Of a stretch of 64,000 nt of DNA, positions 12,731 through 63,232 are shown piece by piece. Position 1 is the first letter of the stretch. Every line of letters starts with the position of its first letter. A program made the position numbers and the translations under genes. The stretch covers positions 4,898,001 to 4,962,000 of the forward strand of contig NZ_JACHDS010000001.1 of assembly GCF_014201195.1 (NCBI RefSeq). Direction: 5' to 3'. The DNA comes from Nocardiopsis mwathae (GTDB lineage: Bacteria; Actinomycetota; Actinomycetes; Streptosporangiales; Streptosporangiaceae). The notes beneath the pieces were generated by a model. The model ran no database searches and was not told the origin of the DNA. It saw only the letters and a program-made list of their open reading frames with translations.

Positions 12731-14009
12731 GTCCGCCTCGCCTTTCGTCGGGTTCCTGTTCACTCCGGATCGTCCGGTCGCCCGCCCCGAGTACCAGGGC
12801 GGAGGTGAATCCGCCGTGGCCGCGGGCCAGGACGAGCGCGGTCCGCGGCCTGATCCGCCGCGGGTGGTCGAGGACCAGGTCGAGCCCGCAGTCCGCGGTC
12901 GGCCGCAGCCCGCCGGCGGTGTGCGGTACGACGCCGCTGCCGAGCGCCAGCAGGGCCGTCGCGGCGTCGAGCGCCGCCCCGCCGGCGTACAGCCGCCCCG
13001 TCAGGGTCTTCGGCGCGGTCACCGGGACCCCGCCGGGACCGAAGACCTCGGTGATCGCCCTGGCCTCGTCGCGGTCACGCTCGGGTAGGCCGAACGCGTC
13101 GGCGAAGACGACGCCGACCGCACCCGGTTCGAGCTCCGCGTCGGCCAGTGCCCGACGGATCACCGACGCCAGCACGGGTGGCCGACCCGCCCATGGGGCC
13201 GGGTCGAACCCGGCCGCGTAGCCGAGCAGCGCTCCGTAGTGTCCGGCGCTGCGCCGATCCGCCGACTCGACGGTGAGGAAGGCGCCGCCTTCCCCTGGGA
13301 CGTATCCGGATGCCGCCGAATCGAAGGGGCGGTAGGCCGCGCCGGGGTCGCTGATCGTCGAGAGTCCGCCCGCCGTCAACTGCGCGACGAGGCCGTAGGG
13401 GCACAGCGGGGCATCGGTTCCGCCCGCGAGCACGAGCTGTGAGCCGGTCGACAGCAGCCGCCGGGCCTGGCCGAGTGCGTCCAGCCCGCCAGCCTGCTCG
13501 CTGCAGAGCACGCCGCACGGGCCGCGCATTCCGTGCCGGATCGACACCTGTCCCGTCGTCGCCGCGTAGAACCAGGCGATCGACTGGTACGCGCCCACCC
13601 ACGAGGGTCCCTTCCGGTAGAGGTTCTCCATCTCGTGCTGGCCGAACTCGGTGCCGCCGGACGAGCTGGCGGTGACCACCCCCAGCTCGTACTCGGGCAG
13701 TGCCCCGGGGTCGACGCGGGCGTCGTCCAGTGCTTCCTGCGCGGCGGCCAGTGCGAGGTGGGTGAACCGGTCGGTCTGCGGGATCAGCCGTCCCGGGATG
13801 TGGTCGCGCGCCTCGAATCCCGGGACCTCGCCGGCGACCTGGACCGGGTAGCCGGAGGGGTCGAAGCGGGTGATCCGGCCGAGACCGCTCGTGCCCGCCA
13901 GGACCGCGTCCCAGTGCCGTCGCGCCCCGATCCCGGTCGGTGCCACCACCCCGATACCGGTCACGACGGCCCGCACGCGCCGCCCCGTTGGCACCCCCGT
14001 GGCGCTCAC
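12714..14009 (-). CDS. Type II PKS chain length factor (KS-beta)
   Basis: This 431-residue ketosynthase homologue has the active-site Cys replaced by Gln ([13 protein letters not shown]), the hallmark of chain length factors. It pairs with KS-alpha, primes by malonyl decarboxylation and sets chain length. The GTG start at 14009 overlaps the KS-alpha stop (GTGA) and follows GAGGAGG. The same frame stays open far upstream only as an out-of-frame overlap of KS-alpha. Confidence 0.93.
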
Positions 14010-15283
14010 GCCGGTATCGCCCTCCTCACCTGGAATCGGCCCAGCACCATCGCGGTCTGGAAGCCGCCGAAACCGCTGCCGACGCTCAGTACCCGGTCCA
14101 TCCGGTGGGAGCGTGCCTCGTTCGGCACGTAGTCCAGGTCGCAGACGGGGTCGGGCACCGTGAGATTGGCCGTGGGCGGCACGACCTGGTGTCTCAGCGC
14201 CAGGGCGCAGGCGGCGACCTCCAGGGACCCGATCGCGCCGAGGGAGTGCCCGATCATCGACTTGATCGAGCTGACCGGGACCTCGTAGGCGCGCTGCCCC
14301 AGGCTGCGTTTGAAGGCCGCCGTCTCGTGCCGGTCGTTCTGCTGCGTTCCCGATCCGTGCGCGTTGATGTAGTCGATGGCGGCGGGATCCAGGCGGGCGC
14401 GGTCCAATGCGACCCGGATCGCCTCGGCCATCTCGCGCCCGTCCGGTTTGAGACCGGTCATGTGGTAGGCGTTGCTGCGCCCGGCGAAGCCGAGTACCTC
14501 GGCGTAGACGGTTGCGCCGCGGCGCCGTGCCGCAGCGGCCTCCTCCAGCACGACGACGGCGGCGCCCTCCCCGAGCACGAATCCGTCGCGCCGCGCGTCG
14601 AAGGGCCGCGACGCGTGCCGCGGGTCGGCGTTGTTCGGTGTGGTCGCCTTGATGGCGTCGAAGCACGCCGAGGTGATGGGTGCGAGTGGGGCGTCGGTGG
14701 CGCCGGCGAGGACGACGTCGGCGGTGCCCTCTTCGATGAGCTGGACCCCGTGGCCGATGGCGTCCAGCCCCGAGGTGCAGCCGGTGGAGACCAGCGCGAC
14801 CGGCCCCTCGGCGCCGACCTGCCAGGCGACCTCCACGGCCAGGGTGCTGGGGACCATGTAGCCGTAGAGGTGCGGCACGCCGTAGGTGTGGTCGACGAGC
14901 CAGTCGCGTCCGTCGTCGGCGAGGACGGCGTACTCCTCCTCCAGGCTCATGGTGCATCCCACGGCGCTGCCGATGCTCACACCGGTTCGGGAGGGGTCGC
15001 GGGCGCCCGGGTCCAGCCCGCTGTCGGCGACGGCTTCCCGGGCCGCCACCACGGCGAACTGCGCGGCGCGGTCCATGCGCCGCACTTCCTTCGGCGTGAG
15101 TCCGGCCGCCGACGGGTCGAAGTCGCATTCGGCCGCGACGCGGGACCGGAATCCGGACGGATCGAAGAGGGTGATCCCGCGGGTGGCGGTGCGCCCGGAC
15201 GACAGCAGGTCCCAGTAGGCGTCGCGGCCGATTCCGCCGGGCGCGACGGCGCCGACCCCGGTGATGACCGACCGACGGCTCAC
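14006..15283 (-). CDS. Type II PKS ketosynthase alpha
   Basis: The 425-residue beta-ketoacyl synthase has nucleophile Cys in [15 protein letters not shown] and the two catalytic His residues in [12 protein letters not shown] and [11 protein letters not shown]. It performs decarboxylative Claisen condensations with CLF and ACP. The GTG start overlaps the cupin stop (GTGA). General similarity is to spore pigment and tetracenomycin/pentangular-type KS-alpha, but product class cannot be fixed by reading alone. Confidence 0.95.
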
Positions 15284-51831: not shown

Positions 51832-52537
51832 CGCCCCCGTCCTCCCACGGCCGCGCGTAGCCGAAGCGGGCGCGTGCCGCGTCCAGCCTGCTGCCACCAA
51901 GGACAGCTCGGCGGATACGGGACTCCGTACGTTCCACAGCTTCGGCACGTCGGATGACTTCCGGAAGCGCAGAAGCTGGGATGCGCAGCGCCCCGTTGTC
52001 GTCAGCGAACACCCAGTCACCCGGCGCGACCACCGTGCCCTCGATGTCTACCTGCACACCGGTGCGGTCCAGCACGACGCGGTTCTTACCGCTGACCATC
52101 GTCACTGCCGTACTGAACAGCGGGTAGCCCAGGGCACGGCCTTCTCGCACATCTCGTACCGAGCCGTTCACGACCGTACCTGCCACGCCGTTTTCCTGGG
52201 CGACCGTGCTGAGTAGGGAGCCCCAGTTGGTACAGGTGCGGCTGCCGCCATTGTCAACGACGATGACCGAGCCGGCGGGTACTTCATCGATGTAGTTGGC
52301 GGCATTGCGAAAACCGGCAGTGTCCGCAACGGGCCGATAGCGGACGGTGAACGCGGGTCCGCAAGCCACGGTGCCCGGGGTTCGGGGTCTGATATGGGGC
52401 AGCATGAACGGTGCGGCGTGCAGACTGTCCATGGCGTGGAGACTGTCCATCGCGTCGGAGACAGCGGCCGTGTCCAGCCGGGACATTCGCTCGCGTAGCG
52501 CTTCGAAGTCAGGGTGTGCGGGAGCAAGAGCAGTCAT
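51815..52537 (-). CDS. RraA-family HMG/CHA-type aldolase or decarboxylase
   Basis: This 240-residue RraA-fold protein has SVIVVDNGGSRTCTNWGSLL, VAGTVVNGSVRDVREGRALG (the Arg-Asp-x-x-Glu aldolase motif) and FADDNGALRIPAS. Enzymes with this motif cleave 4-hydroxy-4-methyl-2-oxoglutarate-type keto acids or decarboxylate oxaloacetate. That makes it an enzyme rather than an RNase E inhibitor. A six-residue block, MDSLHA, is tandemly repeated near residue 30. It overlaps its neighbours by four and 17 bases. Confidence 0.85.
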   Translation of the reverse strand: MTALAPAHPDFEALRERMSRLDTAAVSDAMDSLHAMDSLHAAPFMLPHIRPRTPGTVACGPAFTVRYRPVADTAGFRNAANYIDEVPAGSVIVVDNGGSRTCTNWGSLLSTVAQENGVAGTVVNGSVRDVREGRALGYPLFSTAVTMVSGKNRVVLDRTGVQVDIEGTVVAPGDWVFADDNGALRIPASALPEVIRRAEAVERTESRIRRAVLGGSRLDAARARFGYARPWEDGGDDGDL

Positions 52538-54744
52538 TCGGATACCTCCGGGACGCGGTGGTCAGTGAGGTGCCGGACAACGGACCATCCAGCAAACTCG
52601 GTGAAGTAGGTGCCGACCTCGGCTCCGCGATTGGGAATGGTCAGTCCACGTGTGCGCTCGCCGGATGCGTCGCGAACCGTACAGCTCAGGGCGACTGTGC
52701 CGGTGTAGTTCTCGCGGTCCCCGTCCTGCCATGTCCCGGACAGGGCGACGCTGAGGGTCTGCGAGCCGCTGCTACGGCGTTCCTCGGCCAGCTTGGCAGC
52801 GAAGGCGCCTTCAGTGAGCTGGTCATCGATGTCCAGCGCCAGGTCGTGTTGGTCCAACAGCAGTGCCAACTCCTGGACAGCCGTGCGGTGCTGGTCGGTA
52901 ACGATGTAGTCCATCAGCGCGGAGTCCACGCGCTTAGCGAGGGTGCCGACCGCGTCTGCCGAGCCGTCCAGCCGGATATCGACGTACGGGTAGTGCCAGC
53001 GATAGGCCGACTTGATCGGCAGCCGACTGTCCCGAACAAGCTCGTCCACCAAAGCCGCCACATCTGCCTCGATGATGCCGAGCGTGCGCCGGAAGACCGT
53101 GGTCCTCTCGGGCTGGCGAGGCAGGTGTGCGAGGGCCTCGTGCATTGCCTCCGCCAGCATCGGGAGGCATTCCCGGGGCGGGCCAGGAAGCATGATCACT
53201 ACGCTCCCCTGGGCCTCGGCGCGGCATCCCCATGCCGACCCGTTGGGGTTCGGGAGCAGCTCGGCGCCCTCAGGGAACAGGGCTTGGCGGCGGTTGTCGA
53301 CGTGGATAGCGACACCGAAGCGGGTAAGGCGTTCCACGACACCCTGCCAGGCTCGCTCTCTGTGCTCCAGGGGACGATTGAGCGCGCGGGCTACGGCACT
53401 GCGGGTCACATCATCCGAAGTGGGGCCAAGTCCCCCCATGACCACGATGACGTCGTCGCGCCCGAGGCAGCCTTGGATCGTGTCCGAGATCGCGGCCTCG
53501 TCGTCGCGGACGGTGTGGCGAACTCGGACCGCAATCCCGTGCTCGCCGAGTACCCGTGAAGCGTTCCTTCCATTGGAGTCCTCCAGGTCACCGCTGAGGA
53601 GCTCGTCACCGATGGACAGGATCGCGGCCGTGGGCATGTCCGGCGCCGAACGACAGGCGTCGATGATTGACGCTGCTGCCTCGGTCGTCGTGGCGGTACC
53701 GCCGAGATCGTAGGTCACCCGGTCGCGGCGGCGGGCCACGTGCCTTACGGCCTCCTGAATGCCCTCGGCCTCACTGGCAAAGCCGAGATGCTCCAGCATC
53801 AGACCGATGGTCAGGAACGCGGCAGCAGGGTTGGCGCGCCCCTGACCTGCCATGGCCGGGGCACTGCCGTGCACCGGCTCGAAGTAGCCGCCGGCTTCGC
53901 CGATGTTGGCGCTGGCGGCCAGACCCAGCCCACCCATGACGCCACCGCCGAGGTCGGAGAGGATGTCACCGAACATGTTCTCGGCAACAACGACGCCGAA
54001 GCGTTCAGGACGACGCACCATCCACAACGCGACCGCGTCCACATTGAGCACCTCAGAGATGATCTCCGGGTAGTCCGCGGCGATCGTCTCCAGACGCTGG
54101 CGGACGTAGGCGCTGCTATGCCGTAGAACGTTGGGCTTGTCTGCGAGAGTGACCCGCTCGTAGCCACGGTGACGGGCGGTTTCGAAGGCGAACCGCAGGA
54201 TGCGGTCCAAGCCGTGCGATGTCTGAAGGCGGATGCTGGCCGTGGTGTCGGCATGACCGCTGCGGAGCACGTTGGGATGTTCGGCGACCAGGGGCCACAT
54301 CTCGTCCGGTACGTCGCGGAAATCGAGACCCGCATACAGCCCCTCTGTGTTCTCCCGGACCACGCAGAAGCGGTAGGGAGTACCGCCGCCGAGGTAGTTC
54401 TCCACGGGGCGAAGGTTTGCGAACAGGTCCAGTTGCTGGCGCAGTTGGATGATCGGCGAGACATACTGCGCCCCGCGCTTGCGCAGTTCGGGCTCCAGTT
54501 GCGCTGCTGCCTCGCGAGGCGGCTTACTCGTGGTGGCTCCCAGCAGAACGGCGTCGCTGCGGCTGATCAGCTCCCATGTGCGGTCCGGCACGGGGTTTCC
54601 CTCTGCGCGCCAGCACTCCCAACCGATGTCGCCGAATTCCAGATCGAGGGGTACGCCGAGGTACTCGATCACCGGAAGCGCGGCATCCAGGACTTCCGGC
54701 CCGATCCCATCACCAGGCAGTACTGCGATGGTCTTGCGGTTCAT
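52534..54744 (-). CDS. Isopropylmalate/isocitrate-type dehydrogenase fused to CinA-like domain
   Basis: This 736-residue fusion begins with a beta-decarboxylating dehydrogenase (about residues 1-368): VLPGDGIGPEV, VVRENTEGLYAG, ENMFGDILSDLGGG and EPVHGSAPAMAGQGRANP. From MPTAAILSIGDELLSGDLED a CinA/MoaB-type domain follows: VVMGGLGPTSDDVTRSAVAR, LPNPNGSAWGC and VIMLPGPPRECLP. The last 110 residues only weakly recall a CinA amidase domain. The frame is open across the junction, with no stop or frameshift. Tartrate/malate-type substrates are possible for the first half. I know of no established role for this pairing. Confidence 0.87.
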   Translation of the reverse strand: MNRKTIAVLPGDGIGPEVLDAALPVIEYLGVPLDLEFGDIGWECWRAEGNPVPDRTWELISRSDAVLLGATTSKPPREAAAQLEPELRKRGAQYVSPIIQLRQQLDLFANLRPVENYLGGGTPYRFCVVRENTEGLYAGLDFRDVPDEMWPLVAEHPNVLRSGHADTTASIRLQTSHGLDRILRFAFETARHRGYERVTLADKPNVLRHSSAYVRQRLETIAADYPEIISEVLNVDAVALWMVRRPERFGVVVAENMFGDILSDLGGGVMGGLGLAASANIGEAGGYFEPVHGSAPAMAGQGRANPAAAFLTIGLMLEHLGFASEAEGIQEAVRHVARRRDRVTYDLGGTATTTEAAASIIDACRSAPDMPTAAILSIGDELLSGDLEDSNGRNASRVLGEHGIAVRVRHTVRDDEAAISDTIQGCLGRDDVIVVMGGLGPTSDDVTRSAVARALNRPLEHRERAWQGVVERLTRFGVAIHVDNRRQALFPEGAELLPNPNGSAWGCRAEAQGSVVIMLPGPPRECLPMLAEAMHEALAHLPRQPERTTVFRRTLGIIEADVAALVDELVRDSRLPIKSAYRWHYPYVDIRLDGSADAVGTLAKRVDSALMDYIVTDQHRTAVQELALLLDQHDLALDIDDQLTEGAFAAKLAEERRSSGSQTLSVALSGTWQDGDRENYTGTVALSCTVRDASGERTRGLTIPNRGAEVGTYFTEFAGWSVVRHLTDHRVPEVSE

Positions 54745-60220: not shown

Positions 60221-60652
60221 GTGGTGAGCGTGGCTGACAGCATGACCGACGAGCAGGACACGTTCGCCGCTCGGCTGCAGAGGTTGTTTCACGTGGTCCC
60301 GCGCCCGCCCGAGAAGGGTGGCGGTAGCTACTCGGTGGCCGAGGTCGCATCCGGTGTCGGCGTCAGCCGACAGCACCTCTACGACCTGTTGTCCGGTAAG
60401 AAGCAGCGGCCCGCGTGGGAGCTGGTCAACAACATCGCGAATTTCTTCGGCGTCTCGGTGGTCTACTTCGGCGACGACACAGCAGCAGAAGAGTACGCAC
60501 AACAGTTGGAACTGCTGGTTGCCCTTGGCAAGTCAGACGTCAAGGATATAGCACTGCGCCTGGGGCAGCTGTCTCCCCAGCACCGTGGGCTACTGATGAA
60601 CATGATGGAGCAGCTTCAGTCCCTGGAACAGGACGATGCTGATCAGGATTGA
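60221..60652 (+). CDS. XRE-family regulator (EspR-like)
   Basis: This 143-residue protein has a helix-turn-helix (YSVAEVASGVGVSRQHLYDL, LLSGKKQRP) followed by PAWELVNNIANFFGVSVVYF. A helical C-terminal dimerisation part follows. The arrangement resembles EspR and the XRE proteins found beside ImmA/IrrE peptidases. Upstream direct repeats CAGGTAGT (60174 and 60196) may be its operator. It is convergent with the membrane-protein gene. Start among several GTG codons is uncertain. Confidence 0.85.
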   Translation: MVSVADSMTDEQDTFAARLQRLFHVVPRPPEKGGGSYSVAEVASGVGVSRQHLYDLLSGKKQRPAWELVNNIANFFGVSVVYFGDDTAAEEYAQQLELLVALGKSDVKDIALRLGQLSPQHRGLLMNMMEQLQSLEQDDADQD

Positions 60653-60736
60653 ATCGGATTCACAGCAATGAGGACAGCCAGCACCAGAAAACGCAGTTTG
60701 CTTTCGTTATTCAGATCAGGCGGACCTGCTGACCTC

Positions 60737-61882
60737 CTATACGGCACTGTTTCCGACGCGATCAGAAAACTTCCTCCAGGCGCAGGCCAACGCAAGCAAT
60801 TCCTGAACATCTGCCTCCATCCCGGAGACCGCCGGGGCGGCGATAACGGATGCCTCCGAAACGGGCCCCCGTCCCTCTGATCGGCGTACGATAGCATCCC
60901 GCACAAGCTCTGCTTGTCGGATAATCGTTTTGTCGTCGCCAAGGTCAGCAATGTAGGGGCTGAGCGATACAAGGCCATCGCGGCACTCGATGATCCTCCG
61001 ATAGTAACGGAACCGCATAGACCGGAAATGCAGCATCTCCCGCAAGGGGTGCACCGGAGGAAAGAGCGCGATTTCGGGAAATTGCGAGGACAGCGCCGAC
61101 CATAGCGGGCGCAATTTACGGTAGTCGCGGCGAGCCTCAAACCAGAGTCGTATTTTCACGACGAGTGTTCGCCCCCCGGGATATCCAATCCCGACAAAGA
61201 ATGCGATTATGCCAATCGCCAAGATGGGGGTTGTCCATGTTTCTGTACCAGGAATCGGATCGATGCCCAACAGAAGCCGTCCCGACGTAGAAACTACGCG
61301 TGGGATATGGGTACCGATACAGTTCACTGCCAGTCCCGCAGAGGCCAGACGGAGACTCAGACGAGCACGCGACCGGGTGTGGTCGGACGCGGTCCACGCG
61401 AGGTGAGCACCACGCGCCGTCGCATAGCTCATGTACAGATTCCCAAGCGCATAGAACGCCAGTAGTCCCGGAGTCTGGCCAGCGTCTTCATAATTCACGG
61501 CCCCAACGTCGGAATCGATCGAGGCGAATGTGCTGATCAGTGCGAGGCAGGTCAGTAGTGCAATGGCAACCTCGATCCAGCCATGTTTCGGCTTGGCGAC
61601 TGGAGAAACGGCAGACTGCAGCAAGACAATGAGCAACGCGAAGAAGAGCGTCAGAATTACATTCTGAATGAGCTTAGGCGACTGACCCGGAAATACCTCG
61701 GAAGATCCAGCCGCACCGACCATGAGTTGCGCCGATAGCGCCAGGAAAACCATGACAGTGCAAACTACGACGATCCGAAGCCAGTTATCGCGCGGAACGC
61801 GAACAAGCTGGACTAGTTTCCACATGGCAGCAAGGCCGGAAGCAGCCCACATAAGGAGATTCGGCAAAAACATCATAGCCAC
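60737..61882 (-). CDS. Multi-TM protein, MAB_1171c / DUF6545-like
   Basis: This 381-residue protein has about seven N-terminal transmembrane helices (LLMWAASGLAAMWKLVQL, IVVVCTVMVFLALSAQLMVG, VILTLFFALLIVLLQSAV and further). A cytosolic C-terminal domain follows with LRPLWSALSSQFPEIALFPP and FRYYRRIIECRDGLVSLSPY. This is the pattern of the actinobacterial MAB_1171c-type putative transporters. Function is unknown. Its start overlaps the ImmA/IrrE gene by ten bases, so the two are coupled. Codon use is less GC-rich than in the core genes. Confidence 0.82.
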   Translation of the reverse strand: MAMMFLPNLLMWAASGLAAMWKLVQLVRVPRDNWLRIVVVCTVMVFLALSAQLMVGAAGSSEVFPGQSPKLIQNVILTLFFALLIVLLQSAVSPVAKPKHGWIEVAIALLTCLALISTFASIDSDVGAVNYEDAGQTPGLLAFYALGNLYMSYATARGAHLAWTASDHTRSRARLSLRLASAGLAVNCIGTHIPRVVSTSGRLLLGIDPIPGTETWTTPILAIGIIAFFVGIGYPGGRTLVVKIRLWFEARRDYRKLRPLWSALSSQFPEIALFPPVHPLREMLHFRSMRFRYYRRIIECRDGLVSLSPYIADLGDDKTIIRQAELVRDAIVRRSEGRGPVSEASVIAAPAVSGMEADVQELLALACAWRKFSDRVGNSAV

Positions 61883-62415
61883 CCTTGGTGATCATCGAAT
61901 GCGGATCGAAGCCGTCGGGCGGAATGTGTCTTCCGATCCGGAGAGAACTTTAATCGTTCGAGCAGGGTCGACCACTCTTTTATGACTGTCGCTACCATCT
62001 CAGCTTCGCGCTCGTGCTCGGGGCCGTAGCCGTCTCGCATCAGTATGCGTCGAATCAACTCGGGAGGAAGGTCCGGAAACACCTGACTCCATAGGTCGGC
62101 GTCGTTTTTATTTCCACCGTGGCCACTTATGATATGGCCAATCTCATGCAGAATAATGTGATCTTGGTGGGCAGGCGTTGTTTCTTTTTGGTAATAGATA
62201 TGATCTGCCTGCGCTGTGCCTACCCACAACCCAAATGCTCCGGGCACCGGTAATGGGTGAGGAACAAGCTTGATCGGGCGTCCGCGATGCTCACCCAACC
62301 GCTCACATAGCACACGAACATCCAGGGGCGCATCGAGATCCAGTTGACGCAGAAGCTGTTTCACACCACGTCGAAGCTGAAGATCATTGCGCCAGCCTCT
62401 GGCATCACCTTTCAT
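61873..62415 (-). CDS. ImmA/IrrE-family metallopeptidase
   Basis: This 180-residue protein has the zinc motif HIILHEIGHIISGHGG (HExxH) and a downstream glutamate-containing helix (EHEREAEMVATVIKEW). Short members cleave an XRE-type repressor to trigger a response; the XRE protein at 60221-60652 is a candidate target. The C-terminal 30 residues are basic. It overlaps the hydrolase gene upstream by 11 bases and the multi-TM gene downstream by ten. Confidence 0.88.
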   Translation of the reverse strand: MKGDARGWRNDLQLRRGVKQLLRQLDLDAPLDVRVLCERLGEHRGRPIKLVPHPLPVPGAFGLWVGTAQADHIYYQKETTPAHQDHIILHEIGHIISGHGGNKNDADLWSQVFPDLPPELIRRILMRDGYGPEHEREAEMVATVIKEWSTLLERLKFSPDRKTHSARRLRSAFDDHQGWL

Positions 62416-63232
62416 CTGGCCCTGTCTCCATGAACAGACGCTTCAGCTCGACGGCAAGTGCCCATGGGTGACTGACGAGACTGTTGTGACCGCCTGGCAT
62501 TTCAACGAGGTCGTGATCCAGACGTCGGGCCAGCTTCTGCGCACAGCGGTACTCCCACCCGCCTCGTGACTCCACACCGCCGGTAGCAATGACCGTCGTG
62601 GTGTTCGCAGCGGCCACGATCTCATCCGCGCTCAAGGCCGAACGCCGCACCGCCGGAAAGTCCTGGGCGAAGAACCAGCGCAGGTTCTCGTCGATATCAC
62701 CGACCAGGGGACCCGAGCGCGCTCCCTCCTGCACCGAGTCCTGGCCACCGCCGGTCAGTGAGGCCATGTGGCCGATCGCCGCTCGGACGTCCACCGTCGC
62801 AGCAGCCGCGACCTTGTCCAGCTCTGCTTCACGCTCATGGTCCAGGACCAGAGAGGCCATCGGCGGCTCATGCGCTACCAGCATCGAGACCCGATCTGTG
62901 TGCCGAACCGCCAAGTGAAGTCCGATGAGCGCCCCGATACTCGCCCCGATCACTCGGGCCGGCTGTGTCGTCGCGGCCGACAGGACCAGCGCCGCGTCGT
63001 CAGCGTGGCGCGCCATAGTGATCGGGACAGCGCCTCCGTCCGTGCTTCTGGACAGGCCACGACGGTCATAGGAGATGACTTGGTTGTCCCGAGCGAGTTC
63101 GTCAGCGAGCTGTTCGGTCGCGCCCGCTTCACCCATGCCACCCTGGATGATCAAGACAGGTGGGCCCTCGCCGCGTGTCTCGTAGTAGAGCCGGGCTCCG
63201 TCGGCCTCGATGGTCCCCTGAAGCGCCCCCAC
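62405..63232 (-). CDS. Alpha/beta hydrolase
   Basis: This 275-residue hydrolase has an intact triad: nucleophile Ser in VIGASIGALIGLH, an acid in the late strand region around IVAAANTTTVIATGGVESRG, and the His in EMPGGHNSLVSHPW. LIIQGGMGEAG is the oxyanion HG-type loop. The substrate is unknown. It starts the operon with ImmA/IrrE and the multi-TM gene; whether it belongs to that module functionally is unclear. Confidence 0.87.
   Translation of the reverse strand: MGALQGTIEADGARLYYETRGEGPPVLIIQGGMGEAGATEQLADELARDNQVISYDRRGLSRSTDGGAVPITMARHADDAALVLSAATTQPARVIGASIGALIGLHLAVRHTDRVSMLVAHEPPMASLVLDHEREAELDKVAAAATVDVRAAIGHMASLTGGGQDSVQEGARSGPLVGDIDENLRWFFAQDFPAVRRSALSADEIVAAANTTTVIATGGVESRGGWEYRCAQKLARRLDHDLVEMPGGHNSLVSHPWALAVELKRLFMETGPDER

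What the first reader, a model, noticed from the sequence alone, without database searches (positions are those of the whole stretch)
60221..63232. XRE / multi-TM / ImmA-IrrE module
An EspR-like XRE regulator is convergent with a coupled ImmA/IrrE peptidase and a MAB_1171c-like seven-helix protein; the pair overlaps by ten bases. ImmA peptidases cut XRE repressors in mobile elements and in DNA-damage control. A membrane partner would add a signal input. The combination is found in many actinobacteria, yet I know no assigned function. A stress, defence or exclusion role is possible.
Basis: partly seen in the sequence, partly recalled or inferred. Interest (0 to 1): 0.6.

Follow-up and report, generated by a model that had tools for sequence, protein, structure and literature searches.

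The report
Sensor-protease-repressor switch with swappable enzyme

Summary
In detail: an EspR-like XRE gene (60221-60652, +) is convergent with a MAB_1171c/DUF6545 seven-helix protein (60737-61882, -), which overlaps an ImmA/IrrE-type zinc peptidase (61873-62415, -) by 10 bp. In the closest relatives (Saccharopolyspora, Actinopolyspora, Sciscionella, Saccharothrix) the order is XRE>hydrolase>ImmA>TM on one strand, so the convergent XRE is derived. Over 97 non-redundant TM loci, ImmA lies directly upstream in 88 and XRE is nearby in 76. The adjacent gene is usually one small-molecule enzyme (PAP2, FAD monooxygenase, amidohydrolase, P450, amidase, hydrolase): 53/97 at position +1 downstream versus 2-5% further out. 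Enzyme type follows the TM tree. The 7TM model aligns best with GPCRs (Z 16, not proof of homology). Best reading: TM senses a small molecule, activates ImmA, ImmA cleaves XRE, and the enzyme operon is derepressed; a BlaR1/BlaI-like logic built from other parts. Sensing, cleavage and derepression are inferred. Defence, toxin-antitoxin and exclusion roles get no support. No published function for the module was found.

The parts
60221..60652 (+). EspR-like XRE regulator (143 aa), predicted repressor; start may be 60242
   Evidence: EspR PDB sequence match 6.8e-12; nearest XREs are those of the same-clade modules, L138 61-64%
60737..61882 (-). MAB_1171c-family seven-helix membrane protein (381 aa), predicted sensor
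   Evidence: NF042915 290 bits; AF2 pLDDT 87.6, 7 TM helices; N-out/C-in by charge
60773..61144 (-). DUF6545 cytosolic helical domain of the TM protein, predicted output domain
   Evidence: PF20182 residues 247-370, 2.4e-24; L257, L260, W261, P269, R295, D302, A324 at least 90% conserved
61873..61882 (-). 10-bp overlap of ImmA and TM genes
   Evidence: overlap in 65 of 144 ImmA-TM pairs, gap of at most 50 bp in 133
61873..62415 (-). ImmA/IrrE-type zinc metallopeptidase (180 aa)
   Evidence: invariant H90/E91/H94/E135 in 78 sequences; fold match IrrE/PprI Z 9.1, CapP Z 8.9
62134..62148 (-). HEIGH zinc-binding motif of the peptidase
62405..62415 (-). 11-bp overlap of hydrolase and ImmA genes
62405..63232 (-). 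alpha/beta hydrolase (275 aa), the enzyme component in this clade; invariant GxSIGA, GGH and WEYRCA
   Evidence: PF00561 4.5e-14; next to ImmA in Saccharopolyspora, Actinopolyspora, Sciscionella, Saccharothrix and on the S. pogona plasmid

Best explanation
This is one copy of an actinobacterial four-component cassette: XRE repressor, ImmA-type protease, seven-helix receptor-like membrane protein, and one enzyme acting on a small molecule (here an alpha/beta hydrolase). Proposed mechanism: (1) XRE binds near the operon promoter and represses enzyme-ImmA-TM [inferred]; (2) the 7TM bundle binds a small, probably lipophilic compound [inferred]; (3) the signal passes through the cytosolic DUF6545 domain to ImmA, made from the adjacent, often overlapping gene [coupling of the genes shown, contact inferred]; (4) activated ImmA cleaves XRE [inferred from ImmA-ImmR and PprI-DdrO]; (5) the operon is derepressed and the enzyme modifies or removes the compound, so the receptor's ligand and the enzyme's substrate are related [inferred from enzyme type following the TM tree]. 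The logic is that of BlaR1-BlaI-beta-lactamase, with sensor and protease as separate, unrelated proteins.
For: Linkage: ImmA directly upstream of TM in 88/97 non-redundant loci, median gap 0; XRE near in 76/97, upstream same strand in 63. Co-variation r 0.87/0.54/0.53 against permutation maxima of about 0.26. Enzyme: small-molecule enzyme classes at 53/97 of +1 positions, against 2/96, 5/96, 4/91 and 2/78 at +2 to +5 (Fisher 7e-26 against +3..+5); unbiased Pfam counts PAP2 9, P450 7, FAD oxidoreductase 6, amidase 4, amidohydrolase 3 of 48, while no family exceeds 2 of 48 four genes away; many 4-8 bp gene overlaps with the enzyme. Enzyme label needs 15 changes on the TM tree, shuffled mean 35.8, none of 200 as low. 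Window clade: XRE>hydrolase>ImmA>TM in the relatives. Independent case: M. abscessus element KF981876 has XRE>ImmA>MAB_1171c>P450 with 1-8 bp overlaps. ImmA active-site residues invariant, IrrE/PprI fold. 7TM N-out/C-in topology, top structural matches all GPCRs, Z up to 16 over residues 1-246. XRE-ImmA pair also occurs without TM. Upstream of the 7 same-strand operons an inverted pair CTTGACA/TGTCAA is conserved, 41-42 bp apart where both halves fit. PprI cleaves DdrO (PMC4374696).
Against: No direct evidence for ligand binding, ImmA-TM contact or XRE cleavage. About 45% of loci have no recognised enzyme at +1 downstream (some have one upstream or convergent, e.g. SDR, ADH, hydrolase). Operator evidence is limited to one clade; single-sequence inverted repeats do not beat shuffles, and the window itself lacks the conserved pair. 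Foldseek E-values for the TM model are not significant (best 0.035); helical bundles reach high Z easily. Linked inheritance of neighbouring genes explains part of the tree agreement and co-variation.
Confidence: 0.5

Rival explanations
1. Signal-synthesis (autoinducer) cassette: the enzyme makes or finishes the ligand that its own 7TM receptor senses, giving a self-amplifying hormone or quorum circuit of the gamma-butyrolactone kind.
For: One enzyme per cassette, of types that tailor terpenoids, lipids or polyketides; the Adler P450 resembles albaflavenone/pentalenene oxygenases; enzyme type follows the receptor tree; several divergent copies can coexist in one genome.
Against: Hydrolase, amidase and amidohydrolase fit degradation at least as well; no dedicated precursor pathway genes recur beside the module (position +2 and beyond falls to 2-5%).
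Confidence: 0.2
2. MAB_1171c is a transporter (NCBI's name) for the enzyme's substrate or product, and XRE-ImmA senses an intracellular cue; the module is an ordinary transport and metabolism operon.
For: Family name 'putative transporter'; an M. abscessus MAB_1171c knockout has lower cefoxitin MIC and about 50% less biofilm (PMC8707978); XRE-ImmA works somewhere without TM.
Against: Seven helices plus a conserved cytosolic domain, structural matches to receptors and not transporters; tightest linkage and co-variation is with the protease, not the enzyme.
Confidence: 0.15
3. Mobile-element control, toxin-antitoxin, CBASS-like or phage-defence module.
For: ImmA-XRE pairs are typical of ICEs, prophages and TA-like loci (PMC2701414); weak CapH/CapP resemblance; low-GC patch over the module; copies on 11 plasmids and on the conjugative Adler element.
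Against: No toxin, nuclease or CD-NTase recurs next to it; TM not found in viral contigs or by direct search in phage records; the one record in the phage collection looks like a conjugative element with relaxase and type VII genes; the recurrent partner is a metabolic enzyme.
Confidence: 0.07
4. Neutral hitch-hiking: an XRE-ImmA-TM cassette inserts next to various genes and the enzymes are incidental.
For: Enzymes of many unrelated folds; modules lie in accessory regions.
Against: Position-specific enrichment, 4-8 bp gene overlaps, and hydrolase placed between XRE and ImmA in the window clade.
Confidence: 0.08

Closest known systems
ImmA-ImmR (ICEBs1) and PprI/IrrE-DdrO (Deinococcus)
   Same: Zinc peptidase of the same fold (Z 9.1 to IrrE/PprI) next to an XRE repressor
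   Different: Those respond to DNA damage or other intracellular cues; here a seven-helix membrane protein is the constant partner and the coupled gene is one metabolic enzyme
BlaR1-BlaI-BlaZ (PMC9834060)
   Same: Logic: membrane sensor, zinc protease, repressor, one inducible enzyme
   Different: BlaR1 is one protein, a zinc protease fused to a beta-lactam-sensing domain; here ImmA and 7TM are separate, there is no penicillin-binding domain, and the repressor is XRE
CapH-CapP (CBASS regulators)
   Same: XRE plus ImmA-fold peptidase; weak PADLOC hits (1e-8, 7.7e-5); CapP fold Z 8.9
   Different: No CBASS operon; partner is a 7TM protein and a small-molecule enzyme
EspR of M. tuberculosis
   Same: Full-length similarity of the XRE protein (6.8e-12)
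   Different: To my knowledge EspR has no ImmA/TM partner; these module XREs may represent the kind of regulator it came from
MAB_1171c (M. abscessus)
   Same: Same TM family; knockout lowers cefoxitin MIC and biofilm (PMC8707978)
   Different: Studied only as a presumed transporter; module context not considered there

Membership tests
MAB_1171c family (NF042915) | score above curated cut-off over the full length | tested here: met
   290 bits vs 100, positions 2-362 of 362
ImmA/IrrE (COG2856/M78) peptidases | HExxH plus glutamate zinc ligand | tested here: met
   H90, E91, H94, E135 invariant in 78 sequences
ImmA/IrrE (COG2856/M78) peptidases | Pfam PF06114 gathering score | tested here: not met
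   16.7 bits vs 22, E 0.0067: a divergent branch, so 'ImmA/IrrE-type' by fold and active site rather than by the Pfam model
ImmA/IrrE (COG2856/M78) peptidases | fold of IrrE/PprI/CapP | tested here: met
   top matches IrrE/PprI and CapP, Z 8.0-9.1; an M. tuberculosis regulator 7.7; next other fold 5.9
ImmA/IrrE (COG2856/M78) peptidases | cleaves its XRE partner | not testable with these tools
   needs biochemistry; a conserved Arg (R113) in the XRE C-terminal region recalls DdrO L108/R109 but is also present in EspR
EspR-like XRE regulators | full-length homology including C-terminal domain | tested here: met
   query residues 13-138 align to EspR 4-131
BlaR1-BlaI systems | BlaR1-type fused sensor-protease with penicillin-binding domain | tested here: not met
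   separate 180-aa peptidase and 381-aa 7TM protein; no such domain; analogy of logic only
CBASS with CapH/CapP | adjacent CD-NTase and effector | tested here: not met
   none among the neighbours examined
GPCR-type seven-helix receptors | common descent with GPCRs | tested here: inconclusive
   same helix count, N-out/C-in topology, VIA Z up to 16 but Foldseek E at least 0.035; no significant sequence match in PDB
COG2856-Xre toxin-antitoxin-like modules (PMC2701414) | adjacent RelE/PIN toxin | tested here: not met
   recurrent neighbours are metabolic enzymes

The most novel reading that the evidence does not exclude
Actinobacteria use a large family of GPCR-like seven-helix receptors that act not through G proteins or kinases but by switching on a dedicated ImmA protease that destroys a repressor; each receptor is paired with its own ligand-modifying enzyme, making a modular chemical-sensing system with many specificities.
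Probability: 0.3. Interest if true: 0.87.

Novelty: new variant of a known kind. Interest (0 to 1): 0.63.

Why it matters
About a quarter of sampled genomes of the class carry this module, some with four or five copies, yet its membrane component is named only 'putative transporter'. If right, it is an unrecognised chemical-sensing pathway in antibiotic producers and mycobacteria. The enzyme next to each receptor gives a strong hint to the ligand's chemistry, so receptor specificity and ligand identity become directly testable. It also offers ready-made ligand-to-transcription switches, and an evolutionary context for EspR.

Tried and rejected
Viral origin: no TM relatives in viral contigs or by window-TM search in phage records; the ImmA matches in the phage collection (two near-identical Adler records) lie on what looks like a conjugative element. 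Empty-site comparison with the other genome of the genus: uninformative, the flanks are absent there too. Operator search: inverted repeats in single upstream regions do not beat shuffles; only cross-species conservation supports the CTTGACA/TGTCAA pair, and the window and the S. pogona plasmid lack the full pair. Hydrolase as a bystander: rejected after finding it between XRE and ImmA in the relatives. Sequence search of the TM profile against PDB: nothing significant. The literature search found no paper on the module; only PMC8707978 mentions MAB_1171c and none mentions DUF6545. No RNA or repeat feature was pursued.

Full report
Observation. XRE at 60221-60652 (+) is similar over its full length to EspR (6.8e-12). 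The 381-aa protein at 60737-61882 (-) belongs to NF042915/PF20182, and its AlphaFold2 model (pLDDT 87.6) shows seven membrane helices followed by a helical cytosolic domain. The 180-aa protein at 61873-62415 (-) has HEIGH and falls below the Pfam M78 cut-off, but across 78 relatives H90, E91, H94 and E135 never vary, and its predicted structure is closest to IrrE/PprI and CapP (Z 8.0-9.1). The gene pair overlaps by ten bases as stated.

A fourth gene. Upstream of ImmA, and overlapping it by 11 bp, is an alpha/beta hydrolase (62405-63232). On the Saccharopolyspora pogona plasmid NZ_CP031144 the same layout occurs: hydrolase, ImmA, TM, convergent XRE. In Saccharopolyspora indica and endophytica, two Sciscionella and one Saccharothrix the four genes form one same-strand operon, XRE>hydrolase>ImmA>TM; in two Actinopolyspora the hydrolase frame lies in the same place. 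The hydrolases are 48-61% identical to the window's and keep GxSIGA, GGH and WEYRCA, whereas unlinked hydrolases of the family's genomes are mostly about 37-40% identical over the full length. The convergent XRE of the window is therefore a derived arrangement, and the XRE is still the cognate one (nearest XREs are those of the same clade).

How general. NF042915 rings in 96 of 394 sampled genomes of the class, and the module's ImmA profile in 97 of 394. I fetched 80 anonymous loci, three plasmid loci and 80 named ones, and reduced them to 97 TM clusters at 70% identity. ImmA is directly upstream on the same strand in 88, within 3.5 kb in 92; XRE within 3.5 kb in 76, of which upstream same strand 63 and convergent 11; the median ImmA-TM gap is 0. 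Distances between proteins co-vary: TM-ImmA r 0.87, TM-XRE 0.54, ImmA-XRE 0.53, permutation maxima 0.24-0.26; shared ancestry of linked genes contributes to this. The converse is less strict: ten fetched Streptomyces-type loci have the XRE-ImmA pair without TM. The window's genome has a second module, XRE>ImmA>TM>PAP2, at 2.68 Mb.

The interchangeable enzyme. The gene immediately after TM, often overlapping it by 4-8 bp, is typically a small-molecule enzyme. Pfam scan of 48 such genes: PAP2 9, P450 7, FAD oxidoreductases 6, amidase 4, amidohydrolase 3, alpha/beta hydrolase 3. Of 48 genes four positions away no family appears more than twice. With local profiles, 53 of 97 loci have such an enzyme at +1 downstream, against 2/96, 5/96, 4/91 and 2/78 at +2 to +5; the profiles were seeded from adjacent genes, which is why the Pfam comparison matters. 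Enzyme class on the TM tree needs 15 changes against a shuffled mean of 35.8 (0 of 200 as low): amidohydrolase, amidase, hydrolase and two different FAD-monooxygenase groups each mark their own TM clades, while P450 does not cluster clearly. An independent example is the M. abscessus element KF981876: XRE>ImmA>MAB_1171c>P450, each overlapping the next by 1-8 bp.

The membrane protein. Loop charges give N-out, C-in over 71 sequences, so DUF6545 faces the cytosol. Foldseek's 50 best PDB matches are GPCRs but none is significant (best E 0.035). VIA-align gives Z 16.0 (rmsd 4.3, 241 residues) for the prostaglandin EP1 receptor and 13.7 or more for 50 entries, all GPCRs, over residues 1-246. The tool warns that helical bundles reach 13-14 by themselves. 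I take this as a receptor-like seven-helix arrangement, not as proof of homology; the databank is also rich in GPCRs.

Regulation. In the seven same-strand operons of the window clade the region before XRE conserves CTTGACA (a -35-like element) and an inverted TGTCAA, 41-42 bp apart in the loci where both halves fit the pattern, with Saccharothrix and S. endophytica deviating in the first half. This is compatible with autorepression but is not significant in single sequences and is absent as a pair in the window.

Mechanism. Shown: gene content, order, coupling, active-site conservation, topology, enzyme enrichment, enzyme-receptor tree agreement. Inferred from known ImmA-ImmR and PprI-DdrO biology (PMC2701414, PMC4374696): ImmA cleaves XRE. 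Inferred from architecture: the 7TM protein gates ImmA in response to a small molecule, and the enzyme acts on that molecule. The nearest functional analogy is BlaR1-BlaI-beta-lactamase (PMC9834060); membership in that family is excluded by domain content. The main rival is that the enzyme makes the signal. Defence or toxin-antitoxin roles are not supported by neighbours.

Known or new. ImmA-XRE pairs are known, and COG2856-Xre was suggested to be a generic regulator of further genes (PMC2701414). I found no description of the 7TM-linked, enzyme-carrying version; the only phenotype is PMC8707978 (MAB_1171c knockout: about half the biofilm, cefoxitin MIC 4 versus 16), read there as transport. 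The paper library holds only open-licence papers, so an existing description elsewhere cannot be excluded.

Noticed in passing
L059 (G000:C1:2679000-2694000): Second module of the same genome: XRE with an extra N-terminal helix-turn-helix-like stretch (236 aa), then ImmA, TM and a PAP2-family protein.
   Followed up: partly
L246 / KF981876.1 1-49000: 'Mycobacterium phage Adler F1725' looks like a conjugative element (relaxase, FtsK, VirD4-like, EccD type VII genes) in this half, and carries the full four-gene module with a P450.
   Followed up: partly
L221-L227, L229, L230, L236: XRE-ImmA pair of the same families without any MAB_1171c gene nearby; what signals to it is unknown.
   Followed up: partly
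L126, L130 (also L109, L128): Clusters with two or three TM paralogues around one ImmA (or none), followed by a FAD monooxygenase; suggests receptor diversification or heteromers.
   Followed up: no
L058:14390-16810 and 13440-14420 (beyond the window's right end): 806-aa protein without Pfam match, resembling a polymorphic toxin by layout, with a possible partner gene downstream; a DUF6119 gene lies nearby (L058:17882-19972).
   Followed up: partly
window 52534-54744: One frame joins an isocitrate/isopropylmalate-dehydrogenase domain to a MoCF_biosynth domain, beside RraA-like, DUF6282 and HMGL-like genes: an unusual catabolic-looking operon.
   Followed up: no
window 60500-62500: GC falls to 0.53-0.58 over ImmA and TM against about 0.64-0.67 around, suggesting acquisition, while the coupled hydrolase is at 0.67.
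   Followed up: partly
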